Assembly (NCBI RefSeq): GCF_002001015.1 | Contig: NZ_MUNO01000006.1 | Location: forward strand, 62,001 to 126,000 | DNA length: 64,000 nt | Direction: 5' to 3' | From: Polaromonas sp. A23 | GTDB lineage: Bacteria > Pseudomonadota > Gammaproteobacteria > Burkholderiales > Burkholderiaceae_C | Part shown: piece after piece, positions 1,763 to 44,872 of the stretch | Layout of the letters: the number at the start of each line of letters is the position of its first letter | Numbering within the stretch: position 1 is the first letter of the stretch | Program-made: the position numbers and the translations under genes | The notes under the pieces: model-generated | What the model was told of the DNA's origin: nothing | What the model saw: the letters and a program-made list of their open reading frames with translations, nothing else | Database searches by the model: none

Positions 1763-1818
1763 AAATCGGCAGTGAGCCCTTGCGTGACGGGCGCCAACAG
1801 CTACTAAATTTATAGCGC
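1763..1818 (+). repeat. Double mini-hairpin repeat (family A), copy 1
   Basis: AAATCGG, GCCC-N9-GGGC, then GCTA/TAGC arms ending in ATAGCGC. The right end supplies the TAA stop and the last two codons of mtnN on the opposite strand, so the element abuts and slightly overlaps the 3' end of that gene. Confidence 0.8.
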
Positions 1819-2541
1819 TTCGAGGAGATGCCGGACAATCGCCTGCGCATACAGGCTGGCTACGTCCTTGACGAACACCGGAAAATCCACATGCGCCGTG
1901 TCGTCGGCGCGGTCGGAGATCGTGCGCACGGCGGCAAATGGCAAACCGTAGTCAAAACACACTTGCGCTACCGCCGCCCCCTCCATTTCCACGGCCAACA
2001 CCTCGTGGCCGCCCTGCTTTAAAGCCGTGCGCAGATTACGGGACTCCTGCATGCCTGAAACAAAACGGTCCCCGCTGGCCATCAGGCCGTGATGCAGCAG
2101 GGTCTTCGCAGGCAGCGCGAGGCCCTCAAGCCCTGCTCGGCTGGCCTGAAGCAGGCGCGCGGTCAGCGCTGCGTCACAAGGAAAACGGGTCCGTCCATAC
2201 AGTGGGACTTCGTAGCGCGGAAAAATCGGCGAGGCGTCCAGGTCATGCTGCACAAATTCTGTAGCCACCACCACATCGCCCACCTGAACTCCGTCACCCA
2301 GTCCGCCGGCCACTCCTGTGAAGACGATCCGTCCCACATTGAAACGCTCGATCAGCGCGGTACTGGTCGTGGCTGCCGCCACCTTGCCGATGCGTGAAAG
2401 TGCAAGCACCACGGGCTGACCATGCAGGCGCCCCTGCCAGAAATCACGTCCGGCGTGGCTGGATTTCCGGGGCTGTTGCAAAAGTTCGAGCAGGCCCTGC
2501 TGCTCTTCGGCCAGGGCGCTGAGGATGGCGGTGATCGTCAT
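1810..2541 (-). CDS. mtnN: 5'-methylthioadenosine/S-adenosylhomocysteine nucleosidase
   Basis: A 243-residue protein that hydrolyses methylthioadenosine and S-adenosylhomocysteine to adenine plus the ribosyl thiol in the methionine salvage and activated-methyl cycles. Visible family motifs are the early acidic AEEQ segment, a glycine-rich FTGVAGGLG, the nucleoside-binding VEMEGAA and the late SDRAD with the catalytic Asp. The start was set at the ATG at 2541 because MTITAILSALAEEQ is the normal N-terminus; the longer frame would run back into the fadD terminator hairpin. Its stop codon is inside a family A repeat. Expression must come from read-through of the terminator or a promoter in the short gap to it. 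Confidence 0.9.
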   Translation of the reverse strand: MTITAILSALAEEQQGLLELLQQPRKSSHAGRDFWQGRLHGQPVVLALSRIGKVAAATTSTALIERFNVGRIVFTGVAGGLGDGVQVGDVVVATEFVQHDLDASPIFPRYEVPLYGRTRFPCDAALTARLLQASRAGLEGLALPAKTLLHHGLMASGDRFVSGMQESRNLRTALKQGGHEVLAVEMEGAAVAQVCFDYGLPFAAVRTISDRADDTAHVDFPVFVKDVASLYAQAIVRHLLEAL

Positions 2542-2572
2542 GGTTGCCAGTTTGCCCGAAATGCCGAGCTTC

Positions 2573-2600
2573 AATAAAAAAGGCGGCCGAAGCCGCCTTT
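2573..2600 (-). terminator. Rho-independent terminator of fadD
   Basis: On the minus strand, AAAGGCGGC - TTCG loop - GCCGCCTTT is followed by a run of T (the A-tract at 2574-2581 on the plus strand). Nine perfect pairs with a stable tetraloop and a U-tract, 23 bp after the fadD stop. Confidence 0.9.
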
Positions 2601-2622
2601 GCTGCAAGAAGTGGCTTGCGCC

Positions 2623-4311
2623 TTACTTCTTGTCACGCAGTTCGCGGCGCAGAATTTTTCCGACCGGCGTTTTCGGCAGCTCCGTGCGGAACTCCACCAC
2701 CTTGGGCTGCTTGTAACCAGTCAGGTTGGTCTTGCAGAACTCGCGCACCTGGGCCTCAGTGAGGTCGGGGTTTTTCTTGACGATGACCAGCTTGACGGCT
2801 TCGCCCGACTTTTCGTCGACCACGCCAACGCAGGCGCATTCCATCACGCCTTCCATGCCGGACACCACGTCTTCAACCTCATTCGGGTAGACATTGAAGC
2901 CGCTCACGAGGATCATGTCCTTCTTGCGGTCCACGATCTTGAAGAAACCGCGCTCATCGACCACCCCAATGTCGCCGGATTTGAAGTAGCCGTCAGGTGT
3001 CATGACCTTGGCGGTTTCGTCAGGGCGCTGCCAGTAGCCGGCCATGACTTGCGGGCCCTTGATGGCGATCTCACCGGGCTGGCCGGCTGGCACTTCGTTG
3101 CCGTCATCGTCGAGCAGCTTGAACCAGGTGCCGGGAATTGGCACACCGATGGTGCCGGTGAAGGCCTTGCTGTTGGTCGGGTTGCAGCTGGCCGACGGAG
3201 AGGTTTCCGACAAGCCATAACCTTCGCAGATCGGGCAGCCGGTTTTTTCCAGCCACAACTTGGCGACCGCGCTTTGCACCGCCATGCCGCCGCCCAGTGA
3301 GATTTTCAAGTGAGACCAGTCCACGGTGTTGAAGTCCGGGTGGTTGGCCAGGCCGTTGAACAGCGTGTTGACCGCCGGAAAGCTGTGCACCTTGTGCTTG
3401 GACAGCTCCTTGAGAACGGCCGGCAGATCGCGCGGATTCGGAATCAGGATGTTCTTGCCGCCGGTGCGCATTCCCAGCATCATGTTCACCGTGAAGGCGA
3501 AGATGTGATACAGCGGCAGCGCGCAGACATAGGTGGGCTGAGCGCCGGACGTCATGCTGGACATGGCCGGGCCGTTCCAGGCCTCGGACTGCAGCACATT
3601 GGCGATCACATTGCGGTGCAGCAGCACGGCACCTTTGGAGACACCGGTGGTGCCGCCGGTGTATTGGAGAACCGCTACGTCATCAGGCTTGATGTCGGGA
3701 CGCTTGAGCGTGCCGCGTGTACCCTGTGCAACAGCGTCATTGAAACGCACAGCGCCAGGCAGGTTGAAGGCTGGCACCATTTTCTTGACATTGCGCACCA
3801 CGTAGTTGACCAGTGCGCCCTTGAGCATGCCCAGCTGGTCGCCCATGGCCGTCAGCACCACATGCTTGACGGGCGTGGCGGCGATGCACTGCTCCAGCGT
3901 GTTGGCGAAGTTTTCGATGATGACGATCGCCTTCGCGCCGGAGTCCTTGAGCTGGTGCTCGAGTTCGCGCGGGGTGTACAGCGGGTTGACGTTGACCACC
4001 ACAAAACCGGCACGCAGAATGGCCGCCACCGTGACCGGGTACTGCGGCACGTTGGGCATCATGATGGCAACACGATCCCCCTTGGCCAACCCCAGCCCCT
4101 GGAGGTAAGCAGCAAACGCCTGTGACAGGCTGTCCGTCTGGCCGAAAGTGATGTCCTTGCCCATGAAGCTGTAGGCCACGGCCGAAGCGTTCTTGGCAAA
4201 ACTTTCTTCCATCAGCGCTACCAGCGAAGCGTATTGCGACGCATCAATGTCGGCCGGCACGCCCGGTGGATAGGCTTTCAGCCAGGGACGGTCGAGGGTG
4301 GATGCATTCAT
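2623..4311 (-). CDS. fadD: Long-chain fatty-acid-CoA ligase
   Basis: A 562-residue AMP-forming acyl-CoA synthetase that activates long-chain fatty acids for beta-oxidation or lipid synthesis. It shows the AMP-binding signature YTGGTTGVSKGA (around residue 210), GYGLSETSP, the hinge region FKIVDRKKDMILVSGFNVYP and the catalytic lysine near the C-terminus in TPVGKILRRELR. The ATG at 4311 was chosen because GGAG lies 9 nt upstream; an in-frame codon at 4341 lacks such a site. The gene is monocistronic, ending in a strong terminator. The neighbouring pnt operon is transcribed in the same direction. Confidence 0.92.
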   Translation of the reverse strand: MNASTLDRPWLKAYPPGVPADIDASQYASLVALMEESFAKNASAVAYSFMGKDITFGQTDSLSQAFAAYLQGLGLAKGDRVAIMMPNVPQYPVTVAAILRAGFVVVNVNPLYTPRELEHQLKDSGAKAIVIIENFANTLEQCIAATPVKHVVLTAMGDQLGMLKGALVNYVVRNVKKMVPAFNLPGAVRFNDAVAQGTRGTLKRPDIKPDDVAVLQYTGGTTGVSKGAVLLHRNVIANVLQSEAWNGPAMSSMTSGAQPTYVCALPLYHIFAFTVNMMLGMRTGGKNILIPNPRDLPAVLKELSKHKVHSFPAVNTLFNGLANHPDFNTVDWSHLKISLGGGMAVQSAVAKLWLEKTGCPICEGYGLSETSPSASCNPTNSKAFTGTIGVPIPGTWFKLLDDDGNEVPAGQPGEIAIKGPQVMAGYWQRPDETAKVMTPDGYFKSGDIGVVDERGFFKIVDRKKDMILVSGFNVYPNEVEDVVSGMEGVMECACVGVVDEKSGEAVKLVIVKKNPDLTEAQVREFCKTNLTGYKQPKVVEFRTELPKTPVGKILRRELRDKK

Positions 4312-11714: not shown

Positions 11715-11768
11715 AAATCAAACGTTTGCCCTTTAAATACGGGTGTCAATAGCTATTGTTTTTATAGC
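11715..11768 (+). repeat. Double mini-hairpin repeat (family A), copy 2, with a partial second start
   Basis: GCCCTTTAAATACGGG forms the first mini-hairpin with a G-T pair; GCTAT-N7-ATAGC is a perfect second one. Right after it, 11769-11786 repeats the opening AAATCAGG...CAGGCCCT, as if a truncated tandem copy begins there. It abuts the 3' end of the kinase gene on the minus strand. Confidence 0.75.
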
Positions 11769-11786: not shown

Positions 11787-13640
11787 CTAAGGAATCCGGA
11801 TTTCCACCACGGTACGGCCCGGCTGGCTGGTGATCAAAACCGTGACGCCGATGGCTGTCGCCCGCTCGCGCATGGAGAGCAAACCCTTGCGGGGCTGCAG
11901 CGCTGCGTCAAAACCGAGCCCGTTGTCGACCACGCGCAGGACCATGCCGGAGCCAGCCATTTCTGCCTCGATCGCCAGCGTGGTCGCATGTGAATGCTGC
12001 AGCACATTGGAGAGCGCCTCGAACACCATGAACTGCAGTTGCCGCATGGCGTTGGCGTCCATGCGGGCCATCGGCTCCAGGCTGCCGACCACCCACTGCA
12101 GCTCGATGTCCGACGCTGCAAAGCGCGGCTCCAGCCGGTAGCGCAGGTTGGCCAGCAGCGAACTGATGTCGCCTGGCAGCAAATGCATGGCGTCAATCGA
12201 CAGCTTGAGCTGGTCCAGCGTGTAACGCAGTGTCTGCAGCACGTCCTCGCTGCTGGCCTTGCCAGACTGCAGCTGCCGGATCGCGGCGCTCAAATGCGCG
12301 CCCACGCCGTCATGCATGTCGCGCAAGATGCGGGTGCGCTCGCTGACGCGCTCCTGCTCGCGCGCCAGCTGCTCAACCTTCTGGTAGGTTTGCCCCAGCT
12401 CCTGCTCTTTCTGCGCAATGCGGCTCGACAGGTTGGCCATCAGGTCGGTCGCCTGCACACTCACTGCCCGAAAGCGCCGGATCACGATGTAGCCCAGGAC
12501 CAGCCCGAACAGCACCGAGCTGTAACGGATCCAGGTGTTGTCAACATAGCTACCGCTGATGCGGACGGCGACCCAGTCGCGCACGCCCATCAACACATTC
12601 AATGCACCTGCAATGGCGACCATCAGCCACTCCGTGTCGCGCATGCGGATGGCGCCCCAGAGGTAAACCGCCGTGTAAACAATGAACAGCACATTGACCA
12701 TGCCCAGCCAGGCCGTCAGGTACACCGGCTCGCGCAGCGCAAACGACAGGGTGGAAGCTGCGATGGAGCTTGCAAAAAGCGCGGCCAGCCCGCCTCGCAC
12801 CCAGACCATGCTGGGATGCTTGTGCCAGCCAGCCACGTGATGGCAGAAAAGCGCAATGCAGCAAAACCACCCGGCAAAGGCGACCGTCACCACCACGCCC
12901 CAGGCGGGCCAGGCCAGCAGGGGCTGCTCAATGGCAACATCCCCTACTCGCAGGGCCCAGAAAATTTCAGCCAGCCCGGCAAACAGGTAGACCGGTTCAC
13001 GCCGGTTGCCTCGCACCGGATCGGACTGCGTGACCCACAGGGCCATGGCAATCCCGCCGACAAGCAGGCTGAAAATCATCACCCCCATGGAGGCAGCGAC
13101 CCGCCAGTTAAAAGCCGTCACATACAGTGCCCGCGCCTGGCTTTCCGGGCCAATCACCACCGTTGAAAGGCCGCCGCGCCGGCCGCCATCGGCGTGAATA
13201 CGAATACGAAGGGTGTTCTGCGCTCCGAGCAAACGGGTTGGCAAGGAAATGTATTGCGGGGACTTGGCATAGTCCTCCGTATTGGGTCGCCCCGGATCAC
13301 CAAAACGCGCCAACAAGGAGCCGTTCAGCCAGATGTCCGCCGTGTTGCCGATGCGCTGGAAGTAAACACCGTAAGGCTCCTTCTCGACCACGGCCAGGGA
13401 AAACGCCATTTCAAAAACAGCATCGCCCGGCTGCCCCTTGTGATGGCGGTCCCAGTGGTAGGGCAAGGCCACGTTTTTCTGTTCGGGAGGGCTGCCCTGC
13501 ACGGTGACCACGGCGCGGGCCTCGCGCAACTCCAGCACCGGCTCCTGCGCATGAACCGCAGTCAGCCCCAGCAGGTAAAAAGCCGCCCCACACAACAAGC
13601 TGCGGCAAAGCAGAAGCAGGTGTGGGGTGCGGCGGCTCAA
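11787..13640 (-). CDS. Sensor histidine kinase with 7TM (7TMR-DISM-like) input domain
   Basis: A 617-residue membrane kinase. Residues 1-31 form a signal peptide ending VHA, followed by a ~140-residue periplasmic beta-sandwich domain, about seven membrane helices (roughly 180-400), a coiled coil and a HisKA_3 domain with the phosphoacceptor His443 in RDMHDGVGAHL. A C-terminal ATPase domain has the N-box FEALSNVLQHSH, DNGLGFD and KGLLSMRERA. It belongs to the NarL-type kinases. The start is a TTG at 13640 overlapping the TGA of the regulator gene (TTGA), so the pair is translationally coupled. The stimulus is unknown; the periplasmic domain resembles 7TMR-DISM ligand domains that can bind carbohydrates. 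Confidence 0.85.
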   Translation of the reverse strand: MSRRTPHLLLLCRSLLCGAAFYLLGLTAVHAQEPVLELREARAVVTVQGSPPEQKNVALPYHWDRHHKGQPGDAVFEMAFSLAVVEKEPYGVYFQRIGNTADIWLNGSLLARFGDPGRPNTEDYAKSPQYISLPTRLLGAQNTLRIRIHADGGRRGGLSTVVIGPESQARALYVTAFNWRVAASMGVMIFSLLVGGIAMALWVTQSDPVRGNRREPVYLFAGLAEIFWALRVGDVAIEQPLLAWPAWGVVVTVAFAGWFCCIALFCHHVAGWHKHPSMVWVRGGLAALFASSIAASTLSFALREPVYLTAWLGMVNVLFIVYTAVYLWGAIRMRDTEWLMVAIAGALNVLMGVRDWVAVRISGSYVDNTWIRYSSVLFGLVLGYIVIRRFRAVSVQATDLMANLSSRIAQKEQELGQTYQKVEQLAREQERVSERTRILRDMHDGVGAHLSAAIRQLQSGKASSEDVLQTLRYTLDQLKLSIDAMHLLPGDISSLLANLRYRLEPRFAASDIELQWVVGSLEPMARMDANAMRQLQFMVFEALSNVLQHSHATTLAIEAEMAGSGMVLRVVDNGLGFDAALQPRKGLLSMRERATAIGVTVLITSQPGRTVVEIRIP

Positions 13641-14556: not shown

Positions 14557-14610
14557 AAATCGGCCTCTAGCCCTTTACGGATAAGGACAAATAGCTATGA
14601 AATCAGGAGC
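14557..14610 (+). repeat. Double mini-hairpin repeat (family A), copy 3
   Basis: AAATCGGCCTCTAGCCC opens the element; GGAC replaces GGGC, and GCTAT is followed by a degraded right arm (CAGGAGC). It lies 12 bp beyond the stop codon of the MipA-like gene, again at the 3' end of a minus-strand gene. Confidence 0.75.
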
Positions 14611-14622: not shown

Positions 14623-16041
14623 TTACAGGGCCGTTTCCAGGTAGGTGTAGATGTAGTTGGAGCCGCCGTTCACATTGCCCAGCAGGCGCGAGGCACCGAA
14701 TATGCCCGAACGGTGCGACACGCCCACACCGAGATAGGTGTTTTTCAGCGAACGCACACCCAGCAGGTCGCCGACGCTGAAGTCAACGCTGGGGTCCAGG
14801 TAATTAAGCAGCCGCGAAGTGCCGCGACCGCGGCCGGCTTGGCTGGTCGCCTCCACATAAGGCACACGCTGCGCCAGCGACAGCCCCACACCCAGGCCAA
14901 GCCGGGTCTTGACTCGCTCGCTCCACGGAAAACCGTAGTAGTAAGCTTTCATGAAAGCATCCAGTTGCAGCCCGTTGGGTGCCAGCCCGCGCTCATCATG
15001 CTGCAGGATGCCCACATAACCGACGATGTCCAGCGGCCAGCCATTGAGCTGGTCAATGAATGGCTTGCCAATCTGAACGCCGGTAATCCGCGTGGAGTTG
15101 ACCTTGGCGGTGGACGCGCAGCGCAGCGTCACGATTTTCGCGAGGTGGCAGCCGTCATCCGTCGACTTGCCGTAAAGCACTTTCACGTAAGTCGGCGAGG
15201 TTTCCTGGGCCCAGTGCCCCTTGTAGGTTCCAAAGTCATAAGCAGCCCCCACAAAGACGCCGGTCTGGCTGCCTTTGGCAACAATCGGACTGGCCTTGAC
15301 TTTGTTATCCAGCAGCGTGTGCGTCACACCGCCCAGCAGCCGCCAGCCGCCATTGAGTGCATAGGTGCCATAAAGCGCCAGTGTCGTGTTCACGCCGCTG
15401 CCCGGCTCGTAAGCCGGCCGCGTCGCCGTGGCTTCGCCAGGCCGCACGCCGTAGTAATAGTTGTTCAGCCGCGCACTGCGCGCCGCCACCGTCAGGCTGG
15501 GGCGCAATGTCAGCCGGCCGGAATGCCAGTCGTAGCTGTAGGAAAGCCGGAGTTCACTGCCCTTTGAAAAGCTGCTGACGTCCTGCAGGTATTCGGCTTG
15601 CAAGGTACCCCAGGGTTGGCGATAACGGTAAGACACCCCGGCGTCCAGGCCGGAGCCGCGTTCTTCCATGCCAGCCAGGCTGGGCGGAATGCGGTCGTCG
15701 GCATAGCCTTCGAAGCGCTGGTCCAGGAAAAGATTAACGCGATGCGTCTCGTTCTTGAGAAGTTTCACGCCAGCGCGGCTACCGTGCAGGAACAGGCGTT
15801 CACCTTCGTACAGGTACAGGGGTAACAGGTCATAACGCGTGCCGCCACCGACATAGGGCGACTCTTCGGCACGCACCGCAAAACCAAGGGCGGCACTTCC
15901 GGGTACCGTCAGCAGGTCACTCAGCGGGTCGGTGTTGGCGTGTGCGCCAGACGAAGCCAACCCCGCTATGCCCAGCGCGATGGCGCCCAGCCAACAAGGC
16001 AGGCGAGTCGGAATGTTTTTGACGGAGTGTTGCGGGCTCAT
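14623..16041 (-). CDS. MipA/OmpV-family outer membrane protein
   Basis: A ~472-residue exported protein. The signal peptide is residues 1-~35, ending SSGAHA. The mature part alternates hydrophobic and polar residues in many beta strands and closes with the aromatic tail YIYTYLETAL, typical of an outer-membrane barrel. Segments such as SPYVGGGTRYDLLPLYLYEGERLFLHG and HTLLDNKVKASPIV match the MipA/OmpV family (scaffold of murein hydrolase or small-solute pore), but it is longer than MipA (~250) because of an insertion in the middle. The ATG at 16041 was chosen so that the signal peptide starts normally; 38 residues of the longer frame look non-coding. Confidence 0.8.
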   Translation of the reverse strand: MSPQHSVKNIPTRLPCWLGAIALGIAGLASSGAHANTDPLSDLLTVPGSAALGFAVRAEESPYVGGGTRYDLLPLYLYEGERLFLHGSRAGVKLLKNETHRVNLFLDQRFEGYADDRIPPSLAGMEERGSGLDAGVSYRYRQPWGTLQAEYLQDVSSFSKGSELRLSYSYDWHSGRLTLRPSLTVAARSARLNNYYYGVRPGEATATRPAYEPGSGVNTTLALYGTYALNGGWRLLGGVTHTLLDNKVKASPIVAKGSQTGVFVGAAYDFGTYKGHWAQETSPTYVKVLYGKSTDDGCHLAKIVTLRCASTAKVNSTRITGVQIGKPFIDQLNGWPLDIVGYVGILQHDERGLAPNGLQLDAFMKAYYYGFPWSERVKTRLGLGVGLSLAQRVPYVEATSQAGRGRGTSRLLNYLDPSVDFSVGDLLGVRSLKNTYLGVGVSHRSGIFGASRLLGNVNGGSNYIYTYLETAL

Positions 16042-16189
16042 GGGGACGACTTCGTGGTTGGCCAACCCCCATGCTAGCCACCACTTCGCCTCTGAAACCG
16101 TCCACACCGCACAACAGGAAAAGCACCTACACGGCGGCAAGGCGCCGGTTGACAAGGCTGTTGCTTAAAGGGCTCAGAACGCCCGCAGG

Positions 16190-28201: not shown

Positions 28202-28257
28202 AAATCGGCCTCTAGCCCTTTAGATACGGGCGCAAGTAGCTACCAAATAGATAGCGC
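28202..28257 (+). repeat. Double mini-hairpin repeat (family A), copy 4
   Basis: AAATCGGCCTCTAGCCC, then GCCC-N9-GGGC and GCTA-N9-TAGC arms, ending GCGC. It lies between two convergent genes, 52 bp past the 3' end of the aspartoacylase-like gene. Confidence 0.8.
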
Positions 28258-28309: not shown

Positions 28310-29287
28310 TTACAAGGGCCGGCGACGCGCGAAGCGCACCACGCTGACGCCAGCACGGGCCTGGCGCACCGAGGGCATCACGAGCACGCAGTTGTCGTAG
28401 GGTGTGGTCACAGGTTCGGTGTCGTTCCAGCCAATCACGGTGCCAGCGTGCTCGATCAGCTCCAGCCCCTGAAAGGCCTGGGTAAAACGAAACCGGTCGC
28501 TGCGCGCCACCACCGGGCCGGTGACTTCCAGCGCCCACTGGCGCGGCGAATCACTTTGCAGCCAACCCGGCAAGGCGCGCTGCAGGGCCTCCGCGTCCAG
28601 CGTATCGGCAGCTTGCAGAAAACGCACGCACATGTCCTGAGCCACCACCCGGCTGCTCAGGTCGCCATGAAAGCCGCATTCCAGCAGGAGCGAGCGTATA
28701 GACGCACCCCCTCCTTCCGGATTGATCTCGCCAAATCGGCCGAAGTCACGCATGCGCACGCCGTCCTTGTGCCCGGCATCGACCACCACGTGTTCAGGTG
28801 CGCGCAAGCTGCGGGCCAGCGCCAGGTTGCGCGGCTGCATGCCGGCCAGCAGCAGGGGCGCCGCGCGTTCATGCATGGAGTGCAGGTCGAGCAACCAGTC
28901 GGCCTGCTCGACAAAGGGCCTCAGTTCTGCAGCGCGGCGACGCTCCAGCGTACTGCCGCTGGCCATTCGATCCTCCTGCCATTGGCGATTCATGTCTTCA
29001 TCGACAAAACGCGAGGCGTCGTGGTTGGCCGGGTCAAACCGGTCAAAGGCCGCCAGATTGCACAAAGCCAAAGTCAGTTGGCCGCGCTGGGGCCTCACAT
29101 CCGCTTCCAGCAATCCTTTCAGCGCCCATGCACCGCATAACTCGTTGCCGTGCACCAGCGCGCTGATCATCACGGAGCGCCCGCTTTGCCCGGAGTCAAA
29201 GTGCCAGACCCCTTCCACACCGGTGTTGCCGGCGCGCCAGGCAGAAAGATCGGGGACCGGAAGTTCAAAAACCGGCGCTTCAGTCAT
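28310..29287 (-). CDS. Succinylglutamate desuccinylase/aspartoacylase-family protein
   Basis: A 325-residue zinc carboxypeptidase-like hydrolase (AstE/AspA family). The metal ligands are seen in SALVHGNELCG (HxxE) and LDLHSMHE; the catalytic-glutamate region is LLLECGFHGD. Members remove acyl groups from N-acyl amino acids. The ATG at 29287 is preferred, giving an 8-bp overlap with the stop of the Bug binding-protein gene; the longer frame lies inside that gene. The pairing suggests that the bound solute is an acylated or amide-linked acid cleaved after uptake, but this is inference only. Confidence 0.82.
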   Translation of the reverse strand: MTEAPVFELPVPDLSAWRAGNTGVEGVWHFDSGQSGRSVMISALVHGNELCGAWALKGLLEADVRPQRGQLTLALCNLAAFDRFDPANHDASRFVDEDMNRQWQEDRMASGSTLERRRAAELRPFVEQADWLLDLHSMHERAAPLLLAGMQPRNLALARSLRAPEHVVVDAGHKDGVRMRDFGRFGEINPEGGGASIRSLLLECGFHGDLSSRVVAQDMCVRFLQAADTLDAEALQRALPGWLQSDSPRQWALEVTGPVVARSDRFRFTQAFQGLELIEHAGTVIGWNDTEPVTTPYDNCVLVMPSVRQARAGVSVVRFARRRPL

Positions 29288-33250: not shown

Positions 33251-33282
33251 GCAGTTACGCGGAGCGAACGACCGTGGGGGCC
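33251..33282 (+). repeat. Tandem tail unit of family B, overlapping the udg 3' end
   Basis: GCAGTTACGCGGAGCGA...GTGGGGGCC repeats the tail at 33218-33248 with small changes. Read on the minus strand it encodes the last residues of the uracil-DNA glycosylase (PTVVRSA and the stop), so repeat sequence forms the end of that gene. Confidence 0.6.
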
Positions 33283-34157
33283 ACACTCAGCGCTAAGCAA
33301 AGATCATCCCAGGCCTTGGCCTTGTCGCCCAGGCTGCGCAGCAGATAAGCCGGGTGGTAGCTGACAACTACCGGCACGCCCAGATAATGGTGCACCTGGC
33401 CGCGCAGCTTTCCGAGCGGGATCTTCTGCACCTCGGGCACGCTGTCCTGCAGCAGCGACTGCGCAGCGAACTTGCCCAGCGCCAGAATCATTTTGGGCCG
33501 CAGCAGCTCGACCTGGCGTTTCAGGTAAGGCTCGCATTGCGCCACCTCGGCGGGTTCGGGGTTGCGGTTCGCGGGTGGGCGGCACTTGAGCACATTGGTG
33601 ATGAACACGCTTCGGGACGCCCCGGTTCGCGCCGGGGCGTCGTCACCGCGCTGCAAACCGATGGCCAGCAACATGTTGTCCAGCAACTTGCCGGCCTGGC
33701 CGACGAAAGGTTCACCGGCGAGGTCTTCGTTTTCGCCCGGCGCTTCGCCGACAATCAGCCAGTCCACCTGCGGGGCCACGCCATCGGCGGCGGCCGGCCC
33801 AACGCCGAACACGGTGTTTTTGCGGCTCTCGCACAAGGCACAAGCGCGGCAACCGGACACAGCCGCCTGCAGGGCAGACCAGTCCATCCGGTCAATGCCG
33901 GCAGGGCGGGGCGGCAAGCCGGGCACCTGACGCGGCGCTGGTGCGGCTACGGGTGCCGGCGCCGTACGCGCAGGCGCTACAACCGGCTTCTCAGCATCAA
34001 ATCGGGGTTGAGCTCTTTCAATACGGGCGCCAGTAGCTATAGTATTAATAGCAGCCTCAACCGGCTGCACCTCTGCCACGACGGGCATCGGCTGCCAAAC
34101 CCGCACGCCCATTTCGCGCAACATGGCGCGCTGGCGCTTGTCCAGGTCCAGGCTCAC
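33255..34157 (-). CDS. Family-4-type uracil-DNA glycosylase (Fe-S)
   Basis: A 300-residue enzyme that removes uracil from DNA. The conserved domain starts about residue 90: CRACALC (Fe-S cysteines), VDWLIVGEAPGENED, GEPFVGQAGKLLDNML, NVLKCRPPANRNP with further cluster ligands, and the late VSYHPAYLLR. An N-terminal ~85-residue variable region precedes it and contains a family A repeat read in frame (IATGARIERA). The start is the GTG at 34157 with GAGGGAG upstream. It is the last gene of tsaB-rimI-udg, 52 bp after rimI. Confidence 0.9.
   Translation of the reverse strand: MSLDLDKRQRAMLREMGVRVWQPMPVVAEVQPVEAAINTIATGARIERAQPRFDAEKPVVAPARTAPAPVAAPAPRQVPGLPPRPAGIDRMDWSALQAAVSGCRACALCESRKNTVFGVGPAAADGVAPQVDWLIVGEAPGENEDLAGEPFVGQAGKLLDNMLLAIGLQRGDDAPARTGASRSVFITNVLKCRPPANRNPEPAEVAQCEPYLKRQVELLRPKMILALGKFAAQSLLQDSVPEVQKIPLGKLRGQVHHYLGVPVVVSYHPAYLLRSLGDKAKAWDDLCLALSVAPTVVRSA
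33999..34055 (+). repeat. Double mini-hairpin repeat (family A), copy 5, inside udg
   Basis: AAATCGGGG...GCTC-N9-GGGC, then GCTATAGTATTAATAGC with a perfect second arm. The whole element lies in the coding sequence for the N-terminal linker of the uracil-DNA glycosylase, in the reverse orientation to the gene. Confidence 0.8.
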
Positions 34158-35454: not shown

Positions 35455-35508
35455 AAATCAGGCTTTAGCCCTTGTAACACGGGCGCCATCAGCTATTGAA
35501 TCAGGAGC
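35455..35508 (+). repeat. Double mini-hairpin repeat (family A), copy 6, forming the end of an EamA gene
   Basis: AAATCAGGCTTTAGCCC, GCCC-N9-GGGC, GCTAT and a degraded right arm (AGGAGC). On the minus strand it supplies the last ~17 codons and the stop of the EamA exporter (tail ending GARVTRAKA). Confidence 0.8.
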
Positions 35509-36474
35509 AGATGGTATCGGCCTGGCTTGTGCCCGCACGCCAAACACGATGCCCGCCGTCACCAGGCCCAGCCCGGCCAGCAGGTTCCAGTACAGCGGCT
35601 CGCCCAGAAAAATCACCGCCCCCAGCGCCGACAGGCCCGGCACCACGGCTGTGATCATGGTCGAGCGGACCGGGCCGAAGTACTGGACCATCTTGGTGAA
35701 GGTGATGCCGGAGATCACCACCGAGCCCACGCCCTGAAACACCATCTGGAAAACAATTTCACCCCAGGGCGCGCTGGCCAGCTTTGTCACCAAAGCCCCG
35801 GAAAACACCAGCAAGCCATAAACCGGCACATAACTCACAAACGCAAACACGCTGATGGCAATGGTGGCCGGCACAGCTTGCAGTGCATGTTTGCGCACCA
35901 GCACCGAATACACGGCCCAGCAGGTGGAAGCGGCGAGGAACAGCAGATCGCCCTTCCAGACCTGGCTGCCAGCGTCCGTCCAGGCGCGCAACAGGCTGGC
36001 ACCGCCCACCATCACATCGCCCAGAAAGATCAGCCCGAGGCCCACAGCGCGCAGCGGGGTGACGCGGTCGCCAAGAATCAACACGGCCATCAGGGTGGTA
36101 CTGAGCGGCAAGGTGCCGGGCAGCAACACCGAAGCGTGTGCGGCAGGTGCGAAATAAAACCCGCTGTAGGCCAGGCAGGCATAACCGACGCCGCCCAGCA
36201 GGCCGATCAGTGCGGTGAGCCGAAAGCCCAGCGGCGACAGGCCCAGCCAGCTTGGCGGCAACACGCCGCCAACGTTGTCTTTCGCGCGGCGCCAGACCAT
36301 CCACGCCCCCCAGGGCAGCAGCACCAGCGCCGCACCGGTGAAGCGCAGCACGCAGATGTCCAGCGGCGTCAGGCTGCGGTGCGCCGTGGCGCGCGCAATC
36401 ACGATAAAGGATGTCCAGATGGTGACGGTGATGATGGCGGCAAGCACACCCACCGTCTTGGGAGAAAAACGCAT
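35458..36474 (-). CDS. EamA-family (DMT) exporter with repeat-derived tail
   Basis: A 338-residue protein with about ten membrane helices and two EamA repeats (TVTIWTSFIVIARATA; AASTCWAVYSVLVRKHAL). After the last helix (AGIVFGVRAQARP) it has a polar tail of ~17 residues encoded entirely by a family A repeat. The ATG at 36474 is preferred over 36525: it gives MRFSPKTVG and has a GATAAT six bases upstream. It is divergent from dacB. Confidence 0.85.
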   Translation of the reverse strand: MRFSPKTVGVLAAIITVTIWTSFIVIARATAHRSLTPLDICVLRFTGAALVLLPWGAWMVWRRAKDNVGGVLPPSWLGLSPLGFRLTALIGLLGGVGYACLAYSGFYFAPAAHASVLLPGTLPLSTTLMAVLILGDRVTPLRAVGLGLIFLGDVMVGGASLLRAWTDAGSQVWKGDLLFLAASTCWAVYSVLVRKHALQAVPATIAISVFAFVSYVPVYGLLVFSGALVTKLASAPWGEIVFQMVFQGVGSVVISGITFTKMVQYFGPVRSTMITAVVPGLSALGAVIFLGEPLYWNLLAGLGLVTAGIVFGVRAQARPIPSAPDSIADGARVTRAKA

Positions 36475-36480
36475 GAGGAG

Positions 36481-36486
36481 ATTATC
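36481..36486 (-). promoter_or_regulatory. -10-like hexamer of the EamA gene, 6 nt before the start
   Basis: GATAAT on the minus strand, followed by six bases and the ATG at 36474. With 36527-36532 on the other strand it forms a nearly symmetrical divergent promoter region. Confidence 0.4.
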
Positions 36487-36526
36487 CGGGCAAGCCACCA
36501 GCCCGGCTTGGCGCAGGGGCAACACG

Positions 36527-38162: not shown

Positions 38163-40751
38163 CTAGGCAGCACTTCCCTCTGCATCCGCAGGCGCCGCCT
38201 CCCTGACCAGGTTGTCCAGCGCATGCGCCACCACGCCATGGGTTTCGACGGGTCGCAACAGGTTGTCCTTGATCAGGCGTTCACAGCTGCGCTTGGTCAT
38301 CGAGTGCGGCTGGCCGCCGTGGCTGACGAACATGAACAGGGTGCCGCGGTTGCTGGCCCAGATCAGCTGCGCGCGCAGCCAGCGACGCTTGGAGTAAAGG
38401 TCTACCCAGCTGCCTTCGCGCAAATCCATCAGAATATCTTCAGGCTTGCGTTGCTCGTCGCCTGCTGCGCGGGTTTGCTCGTCCTCATCGTCTTCATCAC
38501 CCGAAATCGTGGTCGCCTGTTCGTCGTCGGGCGTGGGGCTCAACTCGGCCGGCCCCGAGGGCATGGTGTCTTCAAACCCGGCGTGATCCAACTCTTGGGG
38601 CGCGAGCCAGGGTTGCCCCGCGGCCTTGGCTTTGCGCTGTTCCGGGGTGGCGGGCAGGATGTCGCTCAGGTCAGGTGTCTCGGGTTCGGCCAGCTCGACT
38701 TCCAGTGGCGCCTGATCCGATTCGACGGCGTCGCGCCGGCTGCGAACGCGGCGCAGCTTGAGCACCGGGCGATGGAGTTTTTCGATGGCACTGAAAAACG
38801 CTTCAGTTTCGCGCGGGTCCAGCCCCAGAGACGCCAGGCCTTCATGCAGTTTGCCCAGCAGGCCGGGAATCATGGTGATCAGTTTGCCCGGGCGCTTGAG
38901 CGTCACCTCGCGCTTGACGCTCCACAGCAGATCGGTGACCAGCGAGCCGTAGCCTTCGGGGTCGATCTGGCGCGCGGTGTCGGTCAGCCGCGCATGCGCC
39001 ATGACCAGCGCCCACGGACCGAACAGGAAGTCCAGCACCACCCCCGGAACATTGTCCAGGTCGGCGCGCAAACTCATGTCGAAGGCGATCTGGTCGGCCT
39101 GCGCCTGCCGCTCCTCAGCGAATTGCATGGTCTGCCGGATGTTGCTTCGCTGTGCCTGCTCATGCTGGTCCTGTTCGTCCCACAGGTTCTGCAGGTCCGT
39201 CAGCGCGGCCCCGAAAGGCCTGGCATCCTCAATCTCCAGCGCATTGAGCGTATTGAAAGCCTCGGTGACCGAGTGAAAAAAAATGTCGAACTCGGGGCTG
39301 CGCTCATCGTTGTATTTGAAGCTGCGCTGCGCCACTCGTTCCATGAGGCGCCGGCCGGGGTGGTTTTCTTCGCTGAAAAAACGCGAGTCCACCATGGCCA
39401 AACGCAGCAGCGATGGCTCCAGTGCCACGATGGCCTCGCGCACCGGGACCAGCAGTCGCGGATCCTGCGCAACCTGGTTAACCAGTTTCTTCACCACTTC
39501 CATGCCCAGCACCTGGCCGACATGGGTGGCGTCTTTTTTCAGCTGGGTGCGCACCAGTGCCCGCTCGCGGGCCCGTCCGTACACGCCCCAGACCTGCGAG
39601 CTGAGCTGGCTCAGCACGTCAACAATACGCGAAGGGCCGCCAGACCCAGGCCCGTTTTCCCAGGTATCAGGCTCTTCCCAGGCGTCGGTGGCTGGCAGCG
39701 TGTGACGACGCGGGTCGCTTCGGGTGCCGTGGTAGCTGTGATCGGCATCGCCGCTTTCCTGGTGCTCTCCCGCCTGCAGCGGCGCCTGCGCCGAATCAGG
39801 GGTGGCCTTCAGAGCGATCAACTCTTCTTCGATGGTTGCGTAGTAGGAGGGGGCCAGACCGTGGTTGGCATTGCTGCCGCCACGGAACAAAAAGTCCTGG
39901 AACAGCGCGTCCTTGATTTCGTAATTGGACAGGTCCGCATACTGGGAAGGGGTCCGGGGGAGCGGCTCGTCCGAAACGTAACCTCCCGGGCCGGTTGGGG
40001 CACCGTCACCGGTTTCACCCGGCCCGCCGCTGGCAGGTCTTCCCATTGCGGCACTTGCCTGGGTCGGCTTTCTCTCGTTGCCGGCAGGCGTTTGCAGTAC
40101 CCGGTAGCTGGCCGCCCGCACCTGGGCCAGCTCCAGCATGTTGACCAACTGCTCGTAGACCCGCTTGAGTTCCCGTCCGAGCGGCTCGGCCAGATGCTTT
40201 ACCCACAGGGCACCGACGCCGGGCGCCGCCGGCGTGGCAGCCAGCAGGGCGCGCAGCGCTTGTACATACACTTCGGGCCGAACCGGATTGGCCTCGGGAC
40301 TGACGTTGACCAGACCCTGTGCCGAGCTCATCAAACCATCGAGTTCGGCCAGAACCTGCTCAACGACAGGCGCGACCTGTTGCATCAGTCGTGAAGACTC
40401 GATGCCTGCCTCGACCTGGGTGTCATCGACGAGCGAAAACAAGTCGGCCCCCGCCAGCGCGAGGGCGGCCGGCCGGGAAGTGGACATTACTTTGACCTTG
40501 GGGGTGGCGGAAGCCGCGGCATTGAAGGCCTGCGAAAGGTCTGCCGCATATTGCTGGCACCAGCTGCCCTTGAGTCTCACCAGCTCGCGCCAGGCCTGGC
40601 CCAGCTCGTCCCGCTCGACCGCCTTCATGCTTTGGGTTTCCGCCACCTGCAACGCCGACACGGCGTGGTCAATACAGCGTTCAAGCGCAGGTTTACCCGC
40701 CTTGGCGGCTTCCTGGAGACATCGCTGAAAAACGTCGGCTTGCAGTGCCAT
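38163..40751 (-). CDS. DUF1631-family protein, large and uncharacterised
   Basis: A ~862-residue cytoplasmic protein with no signal peptide or membrane helix. The N-terminal FQRCLQEAAKAGKPALERCIDHAVSALQVAE and the C-terminal SWVDLYSKRRWLRAQLIWASNRGTLFMFVSHGGQPHSMTKRSCERLI region are hallmarks of DUF1631, found in betaproteobacteria and gammaproteobacteria. The C-terminal part recalls PilZ-like folds. In between are long charged, helix-forming stretches and two low-complexity linkers. Function unknown; a c-di-GMP or motility link is only suspected. The ATG at 40751 was chosen over a TTG at 40766; neither has a ribosome site on the coding strand. Confidence 0.82.
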   Translation of the reverse strand: MALQADVFQRCLQEAAKAGKPALERCIDHAVSALQVAETQSMKAVERDELGQAWRELVRLKGSWCQQYAADLSQAFNAAASATPKVKVMSTSRPAALALAGADLFSLVDDTQVEAGIESSRLMQQVAPVVEQVLAELDGLMSSAQGLVNVSPEANPVRPEVYVQALRALLAATPAAPGVGALWVKHLAEPLGRELKRVYEQLVNMLELAQVRAASYRVLQTPAGNERKPTQASAAMGRPASGGPGETGDGAPTGPGGYVSDEPLPRTPSQYADLSNYEIKDALFQDFLFRGGSNANHGLAPSYYATIEEELIALKATPDSAQAPLQAGEHQESGDADHSYHGTRSDPRRHTLPATDAWEEPDTWENGPGSGGPSRIVDVLSQLSSQVWGVYGRARERALVRTQLKKDATHVGQVLGMEVVKKLVNQVAQDPRLLVPVREAIVALEPSLLRLAMVDSRFFSEENHPGRRLMERVAQRSFKYNDERSPEFDIFFHSVTEAFNTLNALEIEDARPFGAALTDLQNLWDEQDQHEQAQRSNIRQTMQFAEERQAQADQIAFDMSLRADLDNVPGVVLDFLFGPWALVMAHARLTDTARQIDPEGYGSLVTDLLWSVKREVTLKRPGKLITMIPGLLGKLHEGLASLGLDPRETEAFFSAIEKLHRPVLKLRRVRSRRDAVESDQAPLEVELAEPETPDLSDILPATPEQRKAKAAGQPWLAPQELDHAGFEDTMPSGPAELSPTPDDEQATTISGDEDDEDEQTRAAGDEQRKPEDILMDLREGSWVDLYSKRRWLRAQLIWASNRGTLFMFVSHGGQPHSMTKRSCERLIKDNLLRPVETHGVVAHALDNLVREAAPADAEGSAA

Positions 40752-40978: not shown

Positions 40979-41000
40979 ATCATCCTGACAGCAGGATGAT
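40979..41000. repeat. Perfect 9-bp hairpin
   Basis: ATCATCCTG (40979-40987), loop ACAG, CAGGATGAT (40992-41000). It directly precedes the diverged family A repeat. Confidence 0.6.
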
Positions 41001-41002
41001 AT

Positions 41003-41052
41003 GGGTTATTTGCCCTTATTTAATGGGCACTACACGCTATATATTTTGTAGC
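41003..41052 (+). repeat. Diverged double mini-hairpin repeat (family A), copy 8
   Basis: GCCCTT-N7-GGGC-N7-GCTAT-N8-TAGC: block spacings identical to copy 4 (28202-28257) although most other bases differ. Conservation of the paired blocks and their spacing is what identifies it. Confidence 0.55.
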
Positions 41053-41254: not shown

Positions 41255-41261
41255 TCTGCGC

Positions 41262-42305
41262 GTGGAAACGCCACCATCCAGCCGTAAAAAGAACAGCCGC
41301 GCCGCCCGTCCGGGCACAGGCGGCATCACCTTGGCCGACGTGGCCCGGCTGGCCGGCGTTTCAGCCATCACGGTTTCGCGGGTGCTGAACACGCCGGCGG
41401 CTGTCTCGCCGCACACCCTGGAGCGGGTGCGTGGCGCGATTTCGCGCAGCGGCTATGTGCCCAACCTGGTGGCCGGTGGCCTGGCATCCAACCGCAGCCG
41501 GTTGGTGGCGGCGCTGGTGCCCACCATCGCCGGGCCGGTTTTCCTGGAAACCATACAGGCGCTAACCGACGCGCTGGCCGAGGCCGGCTGCCAGCTGATG
41601 CTGGGGCAAAGCGGCTACACCGGGCTGCGTGAGGATGCACTTATTGACGCCATCGTTGGCCGCCGGCCCGACGGCATTGTGCTGACCGGCATCATGCATT
41701 CGGCCGAGGCACGACGCAAGCTGCTGGCCTGCGGCATTCCGGTGGTTGAAACCTGGGACCTCACCCCCACGCCGATCGACATGATTGTCGGGTTCTCTCA
41801 CGAGAAAATTGGCCGCGCGGTGGCCGACTTCATCCATGAGCAGGGTCATCGCCACCCTGCCATCGTGACTGCAGACGACCACCGCGCCGGCCTGCGCCGG
41901 GCCGGCTTCGAGCAGCGCTTGCGCGAACTGGGCTTCGGCGCCCTGCCAGCCTGCGTGGTGCCTGCACCCTCGTCACTGGGCAATGGGCGCGCCGGCTGGG
42001 CAGAGCTGCGCAGGCAGGACCAGCACATTGATGTAGTTGTCTGCAGCTCCGACATGCTGGCCCATGGCGTGATGACCGAAGTGCAAGCTGCCGGTATGGC
42101 CGTGCCGGACGACGTGGCGGTGATGGGTTTTGGCGACATGCCATTTGCCAGTCACACCCATCCACCCCTCAGCACGGTGCGAGTCGACGGCGCTGAAATT
42201 GGCCGCCAGGCGGCGCGTTTCATCCTCGACCGGGTCGAAAACCGAGATCCCGGCCCCAAGGTCCGTGACCTCGGGTTTTCCATAGTCAAAAGAGCCAGCG
42301 TCTAG
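41262..42305 (+). CDS. LacI-family repressor (GntR-like)
   Basis: A 347-residue regulator: a basic N-terminal extension, then the LacI helix-turn-helix ITLADVARLAGVSAITVSRVLN (residues ~22-43) with hinge helix, and a periplasmic-binding-protein-like effector domain with the GFGDMPFA motif typical of gluconate-type repressors. It starts at GTG 41262. Operator-like palindromes flank the gene, and the Bug protein and glucarate dehydratase follow in the same direction, so hexarate-responsive control of that unit is the likely role (inference). Confidence 0.9.
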   Translation: METPPSSRKKNSRAARPGTGGITLADVARLAGVSAITVSRVLNTPAAVSPHTLERVRGAISRSGYVPNLVAGGLASNRSRLVAALVPTIAGPVFLETIQALTDALAEAGCQLMLGQSGYTGLREDALIDAIVGRRPDGIVLTGIMHSAEARRKLLACGIPVVETWDLTPTPIDMIVGFSHEKIGRAVADFIHEQGHRHPAIVTADDHRAGLRRAGFEQRLRELGFGALPACVVPAPSSLGNGRAGWAELRRQDQHIDVVVCSSDMLAHGVMTEVQAAGMAVPDDVAVMGFGDMPFASHTHPPLSTVRVDGAEIGRQAARFILDRVENRDPGPKVRDLGFSIVKRASV

Positions 42306-42341: not shown

Positions 42342-42355
42342 TGTTAGCGCTAACA
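42342..42355. promoter_or_regulatory. Perfect 14-bp palindromic operator
   Basis: TGTTAGCGCTAACA is fully self-complementary, with the central CG typical of LacI/GalR operators. It lies 78 bp before the Bug start and 36 bp after the repressor stop. A nearby half-site GTTAACAT occurs at 42329-42336. Confidence 0.75.
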
Positions 42356-42433
42356 TTATGCGAGCATCAAAACCAATCTGCTGTCCATTCTTGTCAAAAA
42401 AGGGCGCGCCGCGCCTTTCCACTGGAGACTTCC

Positions 42434-43447: not shown

Positions 43448-43448
43448 C

Positions 43449-44732
43449 ATGAGAAAAGACATTCGAATCGCACAGGTGCGCATCACGCCAATTGCGTTCC
43501 GCGACGGCCCGCTTCTCAACGCCAGCGGCATCCACGAACCCTGGGCCCTGCGCAGCATTGTTGAAATCGAAACTTCGGACGGCCGGATCGGTATCGCCGA
43601 AACCTATGGCGATGAACCCATGGTCAAGGTGCTGGAGCAGGCCCGGGCATTGGTGATGGGGCTGTCACCGTTTGACTTGAACGTGATGGAAGAAAACGTG
43701 CGCGCCGCCATCAAACCGGGCCACAAGGCCGACGGCAGCGTGCAGTTCGAACTCGCGCCCGGCTCGCACACCGCCAAGAACGCCGACAAGGTCATCAGCA
43801 CGATGGAAGTTGCCATGCTTGACCTGCAGGGGCAGATTCTGGGCTTGCCCGTCTGCGACTTGCTCGGTGGTGCGGTGCGCGACGAGGTGCCTTACAGCGC
43901 CTACCTGTTCTACAAATACGCCGAGCACGCCGGCAAACCCTATGCGCCCGACGCCTGGGGCGAAGCCGTCACACCGGAGCAGGTGGTGAAGCAGGCGCAA
44001 CGCATGGTGGCGCTCTACGGTTTCAAGAGCATCAAGCTCAAGGGCGGCGTGTTTCCGCCGGCCGAAGAAATTGCCGCCATGAAAGCGCTGGCGAAAGCTT
44101 TCCCGGGTGTGCCCCTGCGGCTGGACCCAAATGCCAACTGGTCGCTGGAGACCAGCATCGCCGCGGCGAAGGAGCTTGACGACCTGCTGGAGTACTACGA
44201 AGACCCGGCGCCCGGCCAGGAAGCCATGGCCGAACTGGCGAAACATTGCCGCGCACCGCTGGCAACCAACATGTGTGTCACGACCATGGAAGAGTTCAAG
44301 CGCAATGCCACCACCCATGCGGTGAAGATATTGCTGTCAGACCACCACTACTGGGGCGGCCTGCGCGCCACCGCTTCCCTCGCGCGAATGTGTGATGTAT
44401 TCGGCATGGGCATGTCCATGCACTCCAATTCACACCTCGGCATCAGCTTGATGGCCATGACGCACGCCGCCGCCGCGATTCCCAACCTCACCTATGCCTG
44501 CGACACGCATTACCCGTGGCAAGAGGAAGAAGTCATCAAGGGCGGCCGCATAGCTTTTCATGAGGGTTCGGTCAAGGTGCCGACAGTGCCGGGTCTGGGC
44601 GTGGAGCTTGATCACGCGCAACTGGAAAAGCTGCACCAGCAGTACCTGGACTGCGGTGTGCGCAACCGCAATGATCTGGCGCAGATGCGCAAGTACGACC
44701 CGGGGTTTTCCGGCATCAGCCCGCGTTATTGA
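43449..44732 (+). CDS. gudD: Glucarate dehydratase
   Basis: A 427-residue enolase-superfamily enzyme that dehydrates D-glucarate or L-idarate to 5-keto-4-deoxyglucarate. Seen: FRDGPLLNASGIHEPWALRSIVEIET at the N-terminus, the catalytic KxK in FKSIKLKGGVFPP, the metal ligands in LRLDPNANW, YYEDPAPG and ATNMCV, the SDHHYWGG motif and the His-containing MSMHSNSHLGIS. Its ATG begins 1 bp after the stop of the Bug gene, so the two are one transcript. A strong terminator follows. Confidence 0.93.
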   Translation: MRKDIRIAQVRITPIAFRDGPLLNASGIHEPWALRSIVEIETSDGRIGIAETYGDEPMVKVLEQARALVMGLSPFDLNVMEENVRAAIKPGHKADGSVQFELAPGSHTAKNADKVISTMEVAMLDLQGQILGLPVCDLLGGAVRDEVPYSAYLFYKYAEHAGKPYAPDAWGEAVTPEQVVKQAQRMVALYGFKSIKLKGGVFPPAEEIAAMKALAKAFPGVPLRLDPNANWSLETSIAAAKELDDLLEYYEDPAPGQEAMAELAKHCRAPLATNMCVTTMEEFKRNATTHAVKILLSDHHYWGGLRATASLARMCDVFGMGMSMHSNSHLGISLMAMTHAAAAIPNLTYACDTHYPWQEEEVIKGGRIAFHEGSVKVPTVPGLGVELDHAQLEKLHQQYLDCGVRNRNDLAQMRKYDPGFSGISPRY

Positions 44733-44773
44733 AGCTGCGGCAGGACGCGGGGAGTTTTCGCTGGCGGAAACTC

Positions 44774-44809
44774 AAGCTTGGGGCGGCACTTGCCGCCCCA
44801 AGCTTTTTA
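44774..44809 (+). terminator. Rho-independent terminator after gudD
   Basis: A 15-bp perfect stem (44774-44788 with 44791-44805; AAGCTTGGGGCGGCA and its complement) followed by a T-run to 44808. It would also form on the opposite strand and may protect both convergent transcripts. Confidence 0.92.
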
Positions 44810-44824
44810 CCCAACTATATGTGC

Positions 44825-44872
44825 CATCAGCCCAATAAACACGGGCGCAAGCAGCTATTAATTTGGTAGCGC
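44825..44872 (+). repeat. Double mini-hairpin repeat (family A), copy 7
   Basis: ATCAGCCC, GCCC-N9-GGGC, GCTATTAATTTGGTAGC, ending GCGC directly next to the malate synthase stop codon at 44873. Confidence 0.75.

What the first reader, a model, noticed from the sequence alone, without database searches (positions are those of the whole stretch)
1763..44872. A ~55-nt double mini-hairpin repeat family, all copies in one orientation and mostly at 3' ends of minus-strand genes
Eight copies (1763, 11715, 14557, 28202, 33999, 35455, 44825, and a diverged one at 41003) share the plan AAATCRGG - GCCC-N7/9-GGGC - GCTAT-N7-ATAGC - GC. In six, the element lies within about 55 bp of, or overlaps, the stop codon of a minus-strand gene (mtnN, kinase, mipA-like, aspartoacylase-like, EamA, glcB), always in the same orientation to that gene. 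The diverged copy keeps the paired blocks and their spacing while other bases change, as expected if structure is selected. This suggests a transcribed 3'-UTR element or a non-autonomous mobile repeat with strict placement.
Basis: partly seen in the sequence, partly recalled or inferred. Interest (0 to 1): 0.75.

Follow-up and report, generated by a model that had tools for sequence, protein, structure and literature searches.

The report
Ancient gene-end repeat with operator-like dyad
Hundreds of copies of a 55-letter double inverted repeat sit near the ends of genes in Polaromonas and related bacteria, often stay at the same places while the DNA around them changes, and look more like docking sites for an unknown DNA-binding protein than like RNA hairpins.

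Summary
The eight copies are real and belong to a family of roughly 530 copies in this Polaromonas genome (extrapolated), counted in 59 of 200 genomes of its family (two of these no higher than their control) and at most 20 pattern matches per genome elsewhere in the order. A gene-end preference holds genome-wide; the fixed orientation does not (tandem copies 25 sense, 23 antisense). Each tested locus keeps its own orientation: glcB 24 of 24 (antisense), mnmA 22 of 22 (sense), 134 of 135 detected orthologous copies. Selection on pairing is not supported: no covariation, ordinary folding energy. The second dyad, GCTAYNNAWTNNRTAGC, is two-fold symmetric through its 'loop', with independently drifting half-sites, like the operator of a dimeric DNA-binding protein. 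At glcB, loops and flanks are randomised between species while AGCTA/TAGC stay 91-98% identical. Twelve of 51 Polaromonas genomes are nearly empty; the five in a gene tree fall at three places. A RAYT-like transposase gene does not track the element. Two unnamed 'motif pairs' published in 2017 (PMC5217627) are parts of it. I read it as a REP-like but RAYT-independent, long-retained family of protein-binding sites near gene ends; the protein is unknown.

The parts
1763..1818 (+). element copy between convergent corA-like gene (594-1613 +) and phosphorylase-superfamily (mtnN-like) gene (1810-2574 -), overlapping the stop of the latter
   Evidence: (68.7 bits)
11715..11768 (+). element copy between convergent mnmA (ends 11687 +) and histidine-kinase-like gene (stop at 11787 -)
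   Evidence: (63.1 bits); kept at mnmA in 22 of 30 Polaromonas loci
14557..14610 (+). element copy 12 nt from the stop of a MipA-like gene (14623-16065 -); right half-site is the AGGAGC variant
   Evidence: (57.2 bits)
28202..28257 (+). element copy between convergent NAD(P)-binding gene (ends 28198 +) and aspartoacylase-like gene (stop at 28310 -)
   Evidence: (69.7 bits)
33999..34052 (+). element copy inside the N-terminal part of a uracil-DNA-glycosylase-family gene (33255-34157 -)
   Evidence: (67.1 bits); weak copy in G422
35455..35508 (+). element copy overlapping the stop of an EamA gene (35458-36525 -); AGGAGC variant
   Evidence: (66.3 bits)
40999..41052 (+). diverged element copy in the divergent region between DUF1631 gene (38163-40751 -) and a LacI-type regulator (41262-42305 +)
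   Evidence: (53.9 bits); kept in G544, G536, G313 in the same orientation
44817..44872 (+). element copy between convergent MR_MLE_C-type (enolase-like) gene (43449-44732 +) and glcB (44873-47050 -)
   Evidence: (64.4 bits); kept at glcB in 24 of 30 Polaromonas loci
28215..28231 (+). dyad 1 of the best-scoring copy (GCCC-N9-GGGC); the part that differs most between genera
28239..28255 (+). dyad 2 of the best-scoring copy (GCTAC-N7-ATAGC), an instance of the two-fold symmetric site GCTAYNNAWTNNRTAGC

Best explanation
It is an old, largely vertically inherited, REP-like family of chromosomal elements of about 55 bp placed preferentially at gene 3' ends. Shown here: copy number, placement, orientation locked per locus but mixed between loci, strong conservation of short blocks at glcB amid randomised loops and flanks, near-absence in some Polaromonas lineages nested among rich ones, and no tracking of the RAYT-like gene. 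Inferred: the conserved part is dyad 2, which acts as double-stranded DNA, a two-fold symmetric site bound by a dimeric DNA-binding protein not yet identified; dyad 1 is a second, faster-changing site or a part linked to spreading. A site working on double-stranded DNA at gene ends would not care which strand is transcribed, which fits the mixed orientation. Its likely job is that proposed for REP/BIME sequences (recalled): organising or insulating the DNA at transcription-unit ends (supercoiling, bound-protein barrier). Where the protein or its use is lost, copies decay.
For: Family: 200 matches vs 0 in control; 101 hits with E<0.001 in 864 kb, about one per 8.6 kb. Placement: 76 of 101 outside called genes (copies overlapping a gene end counted as outside) although genes cover 89% of the sample; tandem copies closer to the stop than to the start in 33 of 48 (p=0.013); convergent 20, divergent 8 (p=0.036). 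Orientation: 25 sense, 23 antisense. Per-locus retention: glcB 24 of 30, all antisense; mnmA 22 of 30, all sense; 134 of 195 orthologous comparisons present in the same orientation, 1 opposite. Selection: in 21 glcB orthologues identity is 0.98 (AGCTA), 0.91 (TAGC), 0.78 (central AWT) against 0.33-0.37 in loops and 0.32-0.38 in flanks. DNA-type site: in the 64 best paralogues base frequencies at dyad positions 1-8 closely match the mirrored complement of 17-10, loop positions included; half-sites vary independently (170 sites, Fisher p=0.24); no pair covariation; weak RNA fold z. Reduction: 39 of 51 Polaromonas genomes have 68-570 dyad-2 sites, 12 have 0-20; the five poor genomes in an mnmA tree fall at three places among rich ones.
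Against: No protein was found. Dyad 1 is only partly symmetric (T against G at its fifth position), and its arms differ between genera while often staying an inverted repeat, which could mean that structure matters there. 25 of 101 copies fall inside called genes (home-made gene caller). Placement p values are modest. 54 of 195 orthologous comparisons found no element. The reductions could have another cause, and the tree is of one gene. I have no expression, binding or 3'-end data.
Confidence: 0.5

Rival explanations
1. RNA-level 3'-UTR element: the two mini-hairpins act in the transcript (stability, 3'-end processing, RNA-protein binding). Palindromes read nearly the same on both strands, so mixed orientation does not exclude it.
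For: Close to stop codons; at glcB a classical terminator-like hairpin with a T-run lies beyond the element in many of the printed sequences (by eye, not counted), so it would be transcribed there.
Against: No covariation in 117 paralogues or in 72 hits from relatives; the wobble forms of the fifth pair do not follow the transcribed sense (small numbers); folding energy ordinary; two-fold symmetric preferences in the loop. No Rfam match in the window at gathering scores.
Confidence: 0.2
2. Non-autonomous mobile repeat of the REPIN type: persistent populations copied rarely by a vertically inherited transposase (RAYT or another), with retention as a by-product.
For: Hundreds of copies; dyad 1 has its own version in each other genus sampled, which suggests amplification within lineages; a mostly single-copy RAYT-like Y1_Tnp gene is common: 54 of 59 element-rich against 89 of 141 other genomes, counted by hand; two of 20 such genes have a dyad 56-71 nt upstream of the open frame.
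Against: In Polaromonas the Y1_Tnp gene is in 50 of 51 genomes including all 12 element-poor ones; the one without, G535, is element-rich but only 92% complete. Element-rich G159, G398, G457, G464 and G478 have no match. Only 3 of 20 such genes have a dyad outside the ORF within 700 nt, one more inside the ORF, which I estimate, without a shuffle, as near chance. Many orthologous copies stay in place with conserved cores.
Confidence: 0.2
3. Unusual intrinsic or bidirectional transcription terminator.
For: Gene-end and convergent-gene preference; strict terminators found in 0 of 15 convergent regions with an element against 10 of 43 without (p=0.05, strictest setting only).
Against: No run of more than three T after either dyad in the column consensus of either strand; no significant difference in tandem regions or at looser settings; at glcB a terminator-like hairpin follows the element in several genomes (by eye).
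Confidence: 0.1

Closest known systems
Unnamed 'motif pairs' of PMC5217627 (2017): GCTTAT(N)5AAGCG in Acidovorax ebreus, 114 copies, and ATAGCT(N)22CAAAAG in Polaromonas naphthalenivorans, 125 copies
   Same: Same sequence blocks and spacing: the one match to the second pair in my Polaromonas loci is an element; the 4 matches to the first in loci of other genera read as elements, 3 of them with an intact dyad 2 adjacent. That paper also reports mostly intergenic, near-gene placement, with 44 convergent and 4 divergent of 107 intergenic copies in A. ebreus.
   Different: They reported two fragments as separate motifs of single genomes, without the whole element, family-wide range, retention at loci, reduction, or a mechanism (section 13 and passages read).
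REP / BIME / REPIN elements with RAYT (TnpA-REP)
   Same: High copy, short, palindromic, extragenic, near gene ends, long persistence.
   Different: Not regularly flanking the RAYT-like gene, not tracking its presence in Polaromonas, no constant GTAG or CGTC tag at one end.
BRE, beta-proteobacterial repeat element (PMC3110155)
   Same: A short dispersed repeat of Bordetella and Comamonadaceae, 29 copies in Polaromonas sp. JS666 (passages read).

Membership tests
REP/REPIN-RAYT | many short palindromic copies outside genes | tested here: met
   101 hits E<0.001 in 864 kb, 76 outside called genes
REP/REPIN-RAYT | RAYT gene flanked by the elements | tested here: not met
   3 of 20 Y1_Tnp genes with a dyad outside the ORF within 700 nt, on one side only, one more inside the ORF
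REP/REPIN-RAYT | population size tracks RAYT presence | tested here: not met
   Y1_Tnp in 50 of 51 Polaromonas genomes whatever the copy number; in the family 54 of 59 rich and 89 of 141 other genomes have it, an enrichment not corrected for kinship
REP/REPIN-RAYT | constant tetranucleotide tag (GTAG or CGTC) at one end of the palindrome | tested here: not met
   no such invariant tag in the column profile of 92 copies with flanks; tag names from the title of PMC3733652
structured cis RNA | compensatory base changes in stems | tested here: not met
   paired cells 89.7% against 90.2% shuffled; 82.3% against 82.6%
structured cis RNA | match to a known RNA family | tested here: not met
   0 matches at Rfam gathering scores in the window; not searched below that score
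intrinsic terminator | G+C stem followed by a T-run | tested here: not met
   no run of more than three T after either dyad in the column profile
operator of a dimeric DNA-binding protein | two-fold symmetric base preferences with independently varying half-sites | tested here: met
   for dyad 2; dyad 1 only partly symmetric
operator of a dimeric DNA-binding protein | bound by a protein | not testable with these tools
   needs pull-down or footprinting
motif pairs of PMC5217627 | GCTTAT(N)5AAGCG or ATAGCT(N)22CAAAAG | tested here: met
   dyad 2 adjacent in 1 of 1 and 3 of 4 matches, 0 matches in reversed control; the first pair has no match in the Polaromonas loci
BRE | sequence identity to the 90-bp BRE | not testable with these tools
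MITE / insertion element | recent insertions with target duplications | not tested
   no search for target duplications or fresh insertions was made

The most novel reading that the evidence does not exclude
A genome-wide system: some hundreds of operator-like sites at gene ends, kept over the divergence of many genera and bound by one lineage-specific dimeric protein that organises or insulates transcription-unit ends; when a lineage loses the protein, all its sites decay together.
Probability: 0.35. Interest if true: 0.85.

Novelty: new variant of a known kind. Interest (0 to 1): 0.6.

Why it matters
Short gene-end repeats such as REP sequences are long known, but whether they serve the host is open. 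Here the same loci carry the element across species while loops and flanks are randomised, which is strong evidence of selection. Relatives that are nearly empty give a natural comparison for finding a trans-acting partner. If dyad 2 is a protein site, the family would be a defined, testable gene-end binding system in a large environmental group of bacteria.

Tried and rejected
Fixed orientation to genes: rejected genome-wide. Orientation by replication strand: local GC skew against element strand, Fisher p=0.12, not supported; neighbouring copies share a strand in 43 of 69 pairs (p=0.05), so the window's 8 of 8 is at most a mild run. Runs of '+' rows in the listings looked like replichore bias, but the density suggested incomplete listing and I did not use them. 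RNA structure: rejected as main driver. RAYT: rejected as partner. Terminator replacement: inconclusive. Rfam: nothing at gathering scores in the window. Literature: the searches gave only PMC5217627 and PMC3110155 as relevant; the main texts of PMC3733652 and PMC12306157 hold none of the six group or genus names that I looked for in each.

Full report
What is there. The eight copies read as described. A covariance model made from them recovers them by construction and finds no ninth in the window at E<=0.1, all being on +. The plan is AAATC-RGG-...-[dyad 1: GCCC-N9-GGGC]-GC-...-[dyad 2: GCTAY-N7-RTAGC]. The window lies in a 4.58-Mb genome. The element pattern in named genomes gives 57 of 59 stretches titled Polaromonas and 2 Giesbergeria, so the organism is taken as Polaromonas.

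Copy number and range. The core pattern with up to 2 mismatches matches 200 times in the genome (84 forward, 116 reverse), with 0 in the reversed control. In a sample of 40 stretches of 20 kb, chosen by round coordinates, plus the window (864 kb) there are 117 hits at E<=0.1, of which 101 have E<0.001: about one per 8.6 kb, or roughly 530 per genome by extrapolation. In 300 genomes of the order the dyad-2 pattern exceeds 20 matches only in the window's own family. In 200 genomes of the family, 59 have at least 20 sites by my hand count, up to 655; of the other 141, 135 have 0-5. Two of the 59 (G441, G525) do not exceed their reversed-pattern control. Within Polaromonas 39 of 51 genomes have 68-570 and 12 have 0-20 (reversed-pattern control 4-36 per genome, so 20 is near background). 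Two of the poor ones, G331 and G533, are as close to the window's genome at glcB (84-85% identity) as element-rich G536 or G303 (85-86%).

Placement. With a simple dicodon gene caller of my own (867 genes, 89% of the sample) the 101 hits fall as follows: 48 between tandem genes, 20 between convergent, 8 between divergent, 25 inside called genes. Convergent and divergent regions have equal total length in the sample (22.3 kb each). Tandem copies are nearer the stop than the next start in 33 of 48 (p=0.013). Orientation in tandem regions is 25 sense, 23 antisense. So gene-end preference is real but modest and orientation is free.

Each tested locus keeps its copy and its orientation. Behind glcB, 24 of the 30 best-matching Polaromonas loci (of 51 genomes searched) have an element next to the stop, all antisense to glcB. 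Behind mnmA, 22 of the 30 best-matching loci have one, all sense to mnmA. The five element-poor genomes among the mnmA loci (G331, G533, G302, G545, G552) all lack it there; of the other 25 loci, 22 have it. Among syntenic pieces of six Polaromonas genomes, 195 ordered comparisons (not independent; 74 elements) gave 134 present in the same orientation, 1 opposite, 6 with a dyad only and 54 absent, 24 of the absences being in G549. In 27 readable glcB loci of 22 other genera, all from element-rich genomes, 10 have an intact dyad behind the stop by regular expression, and by eye 8 more show a decayed or stop-overlapping version; by eye I saw none reversed.

Reduction. A tree of the mnmA coding region of the 30 loci (one gene, 11 of 27 inner branches well supported) places G331 and G533 together beside G549 and G422 (supported), G302 among rich genomes, and G545 with G552 next to G551 (this last grouping weak). 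So the poor genomes in it lie at three places, which fits repeated loss better than absence from the start. The other seven poor genomes are not in the tree.

Selection at a single locus. In 21 of the 24 glcB orthologues (3 dropped for length differences), mean pairwise identity is 0.98 for AGCTA, 0.91 for TAGC, 0.82 for the left arm of dyad 1, 0.78 for the central AWT, 0.75 for AAAT, 0.47 for the right arm of dyad 1, 0.33 and 0.34-0.37 for the two loops, 0.32 for the upstream flank and 0.38 for the ten bases after the element. Loops are as random as flanks while the blocks stand, which is not neutral decay. Only loci recognised as carrying an element enter this figure.

Not an RNA structure, as far as the sequence tells. 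Substitutions in one arm are not matched in the other: paired cells 89.7% against 90.2% in shuffles for 117 paralogues, 82.3% against 82.6% for 72 hits in relatives. G-U-compatible forms of the fifth pair do not follow the transcribed strand (small numbers). Folding energies of the best 60 copies are near those of shuffles (mean z -0.70 and -0.83 on the two strands).

Operator-like dyad. In the 64 best hits, aligned by the asymmetric whole element, the base frequencies at dyad-2 positions 1-8 closely match the complement of positions 17-10, including loop positions (position 6: A .20 C .28 G .05 T .47 against A .20 C .31 G .09 T .39; position 7: A .50 C .02 G .23 T .25 against A .52 C .03 G .31 T .14), and the central base is A or T only. 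Half-site variants combine independently (170 of 189 aligned hits with intact GCT and AGC ends, odds ratio 0.58, p=0.24). A hairpin loop has no reason for such symmetry; a site read by a dimer of a DNA-binding protein does. That last step is inference. Dyad 1 is symmetric except at one position and takes a different, usually palindromic form in the other genera examined, so it may be a second site or a part linked to spreading.

RAYT. A Y1_Tnp (PF01797) gene, mostly single-copy of about 240 aa, is found in 143 of 200 family genomes and 50 of 51 Polaromonas genomes, all 12 element-poor ones included. In the family it is commoner in element-rich genomes (54 of 59) than in the others (89 of 141), by hand count and without correction for kinship. 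3 of 20 such genes have a dyad outside the ORF within 700 nt, two of these 56-71 nt upstream, and a fourth has one inside the ORF, which I estimate as near chance. Five of the 59 element-rich family genomes have no match. So the element does not behave as the REP partner of this gene.

Literature. PMC5217627 (passages and section 13 read) lists GCTTAT(N)5AAGCG in Acidovorax ebreus and ATAGCT(N)22CAAAAG in P. naphthalenivorans as potential novel motifs, mostly intergenic, often convergent, and unlikely to initiate transcription. Both read as parts of this element. PMC3110155 (passages) describes BRE, which I could not compare by sequence. PMC8049555 (passages) gives the REPIN-RAYT model used above. 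I found no paper on the whole element in the searches; the library lacks most subscription journals and all preprints.

Verdict. The feature is real, abundant and old, partly noticed before. It works most like REP sequences, but fails the RAYT tests that define the REPIN group. The most likely mechanism is a DNA site near gene ends for an unknown dimeric protein (confidence 0.5).

Noticed in passing
L042:9451-9636, L033:13951-14137, G000 C25:4469-4654: Three pairs of elements in inverted arrangement, AAATC ends facing, with 60-61 bp between model matches; looks more regular than chance, not tested.
   Followed up: partly
window 14557-14610 and 35455-35508: Recurrent half-site variant: RTAGC replaced by ATCAGGAGC (GCTCCTGAT on the other strand), sharing AATCAGG with the element's own 5' end (AAATCAGG).
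   Followed up: no
window 33255-34157: Element lies inside the coding sequence of a uracil-DNA-glycosylase-family protein, N-terminal to the Pfam domain; 25 of 101 sampled copies fall in called genes.
   Followed up: partly
L256-L267: 12 viral contigs carry an exact match to a long element pattern; they may be host flanks of proviruses.
   Followed up: no
G549, G331, G533 against G422 and G000: Close Polaromonas relatives differ about three- to twenty-fold in dyad-2 count; at mnmA the intergenic region of G549 looks shorter where the element is missing (by eye).
   Followed up: partly
L202 (G352): One element-rich genome also carries 18 matches to Y1_Tnp, several of about 150 aa, probably an IS200-type expansion.
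   Followed up: no
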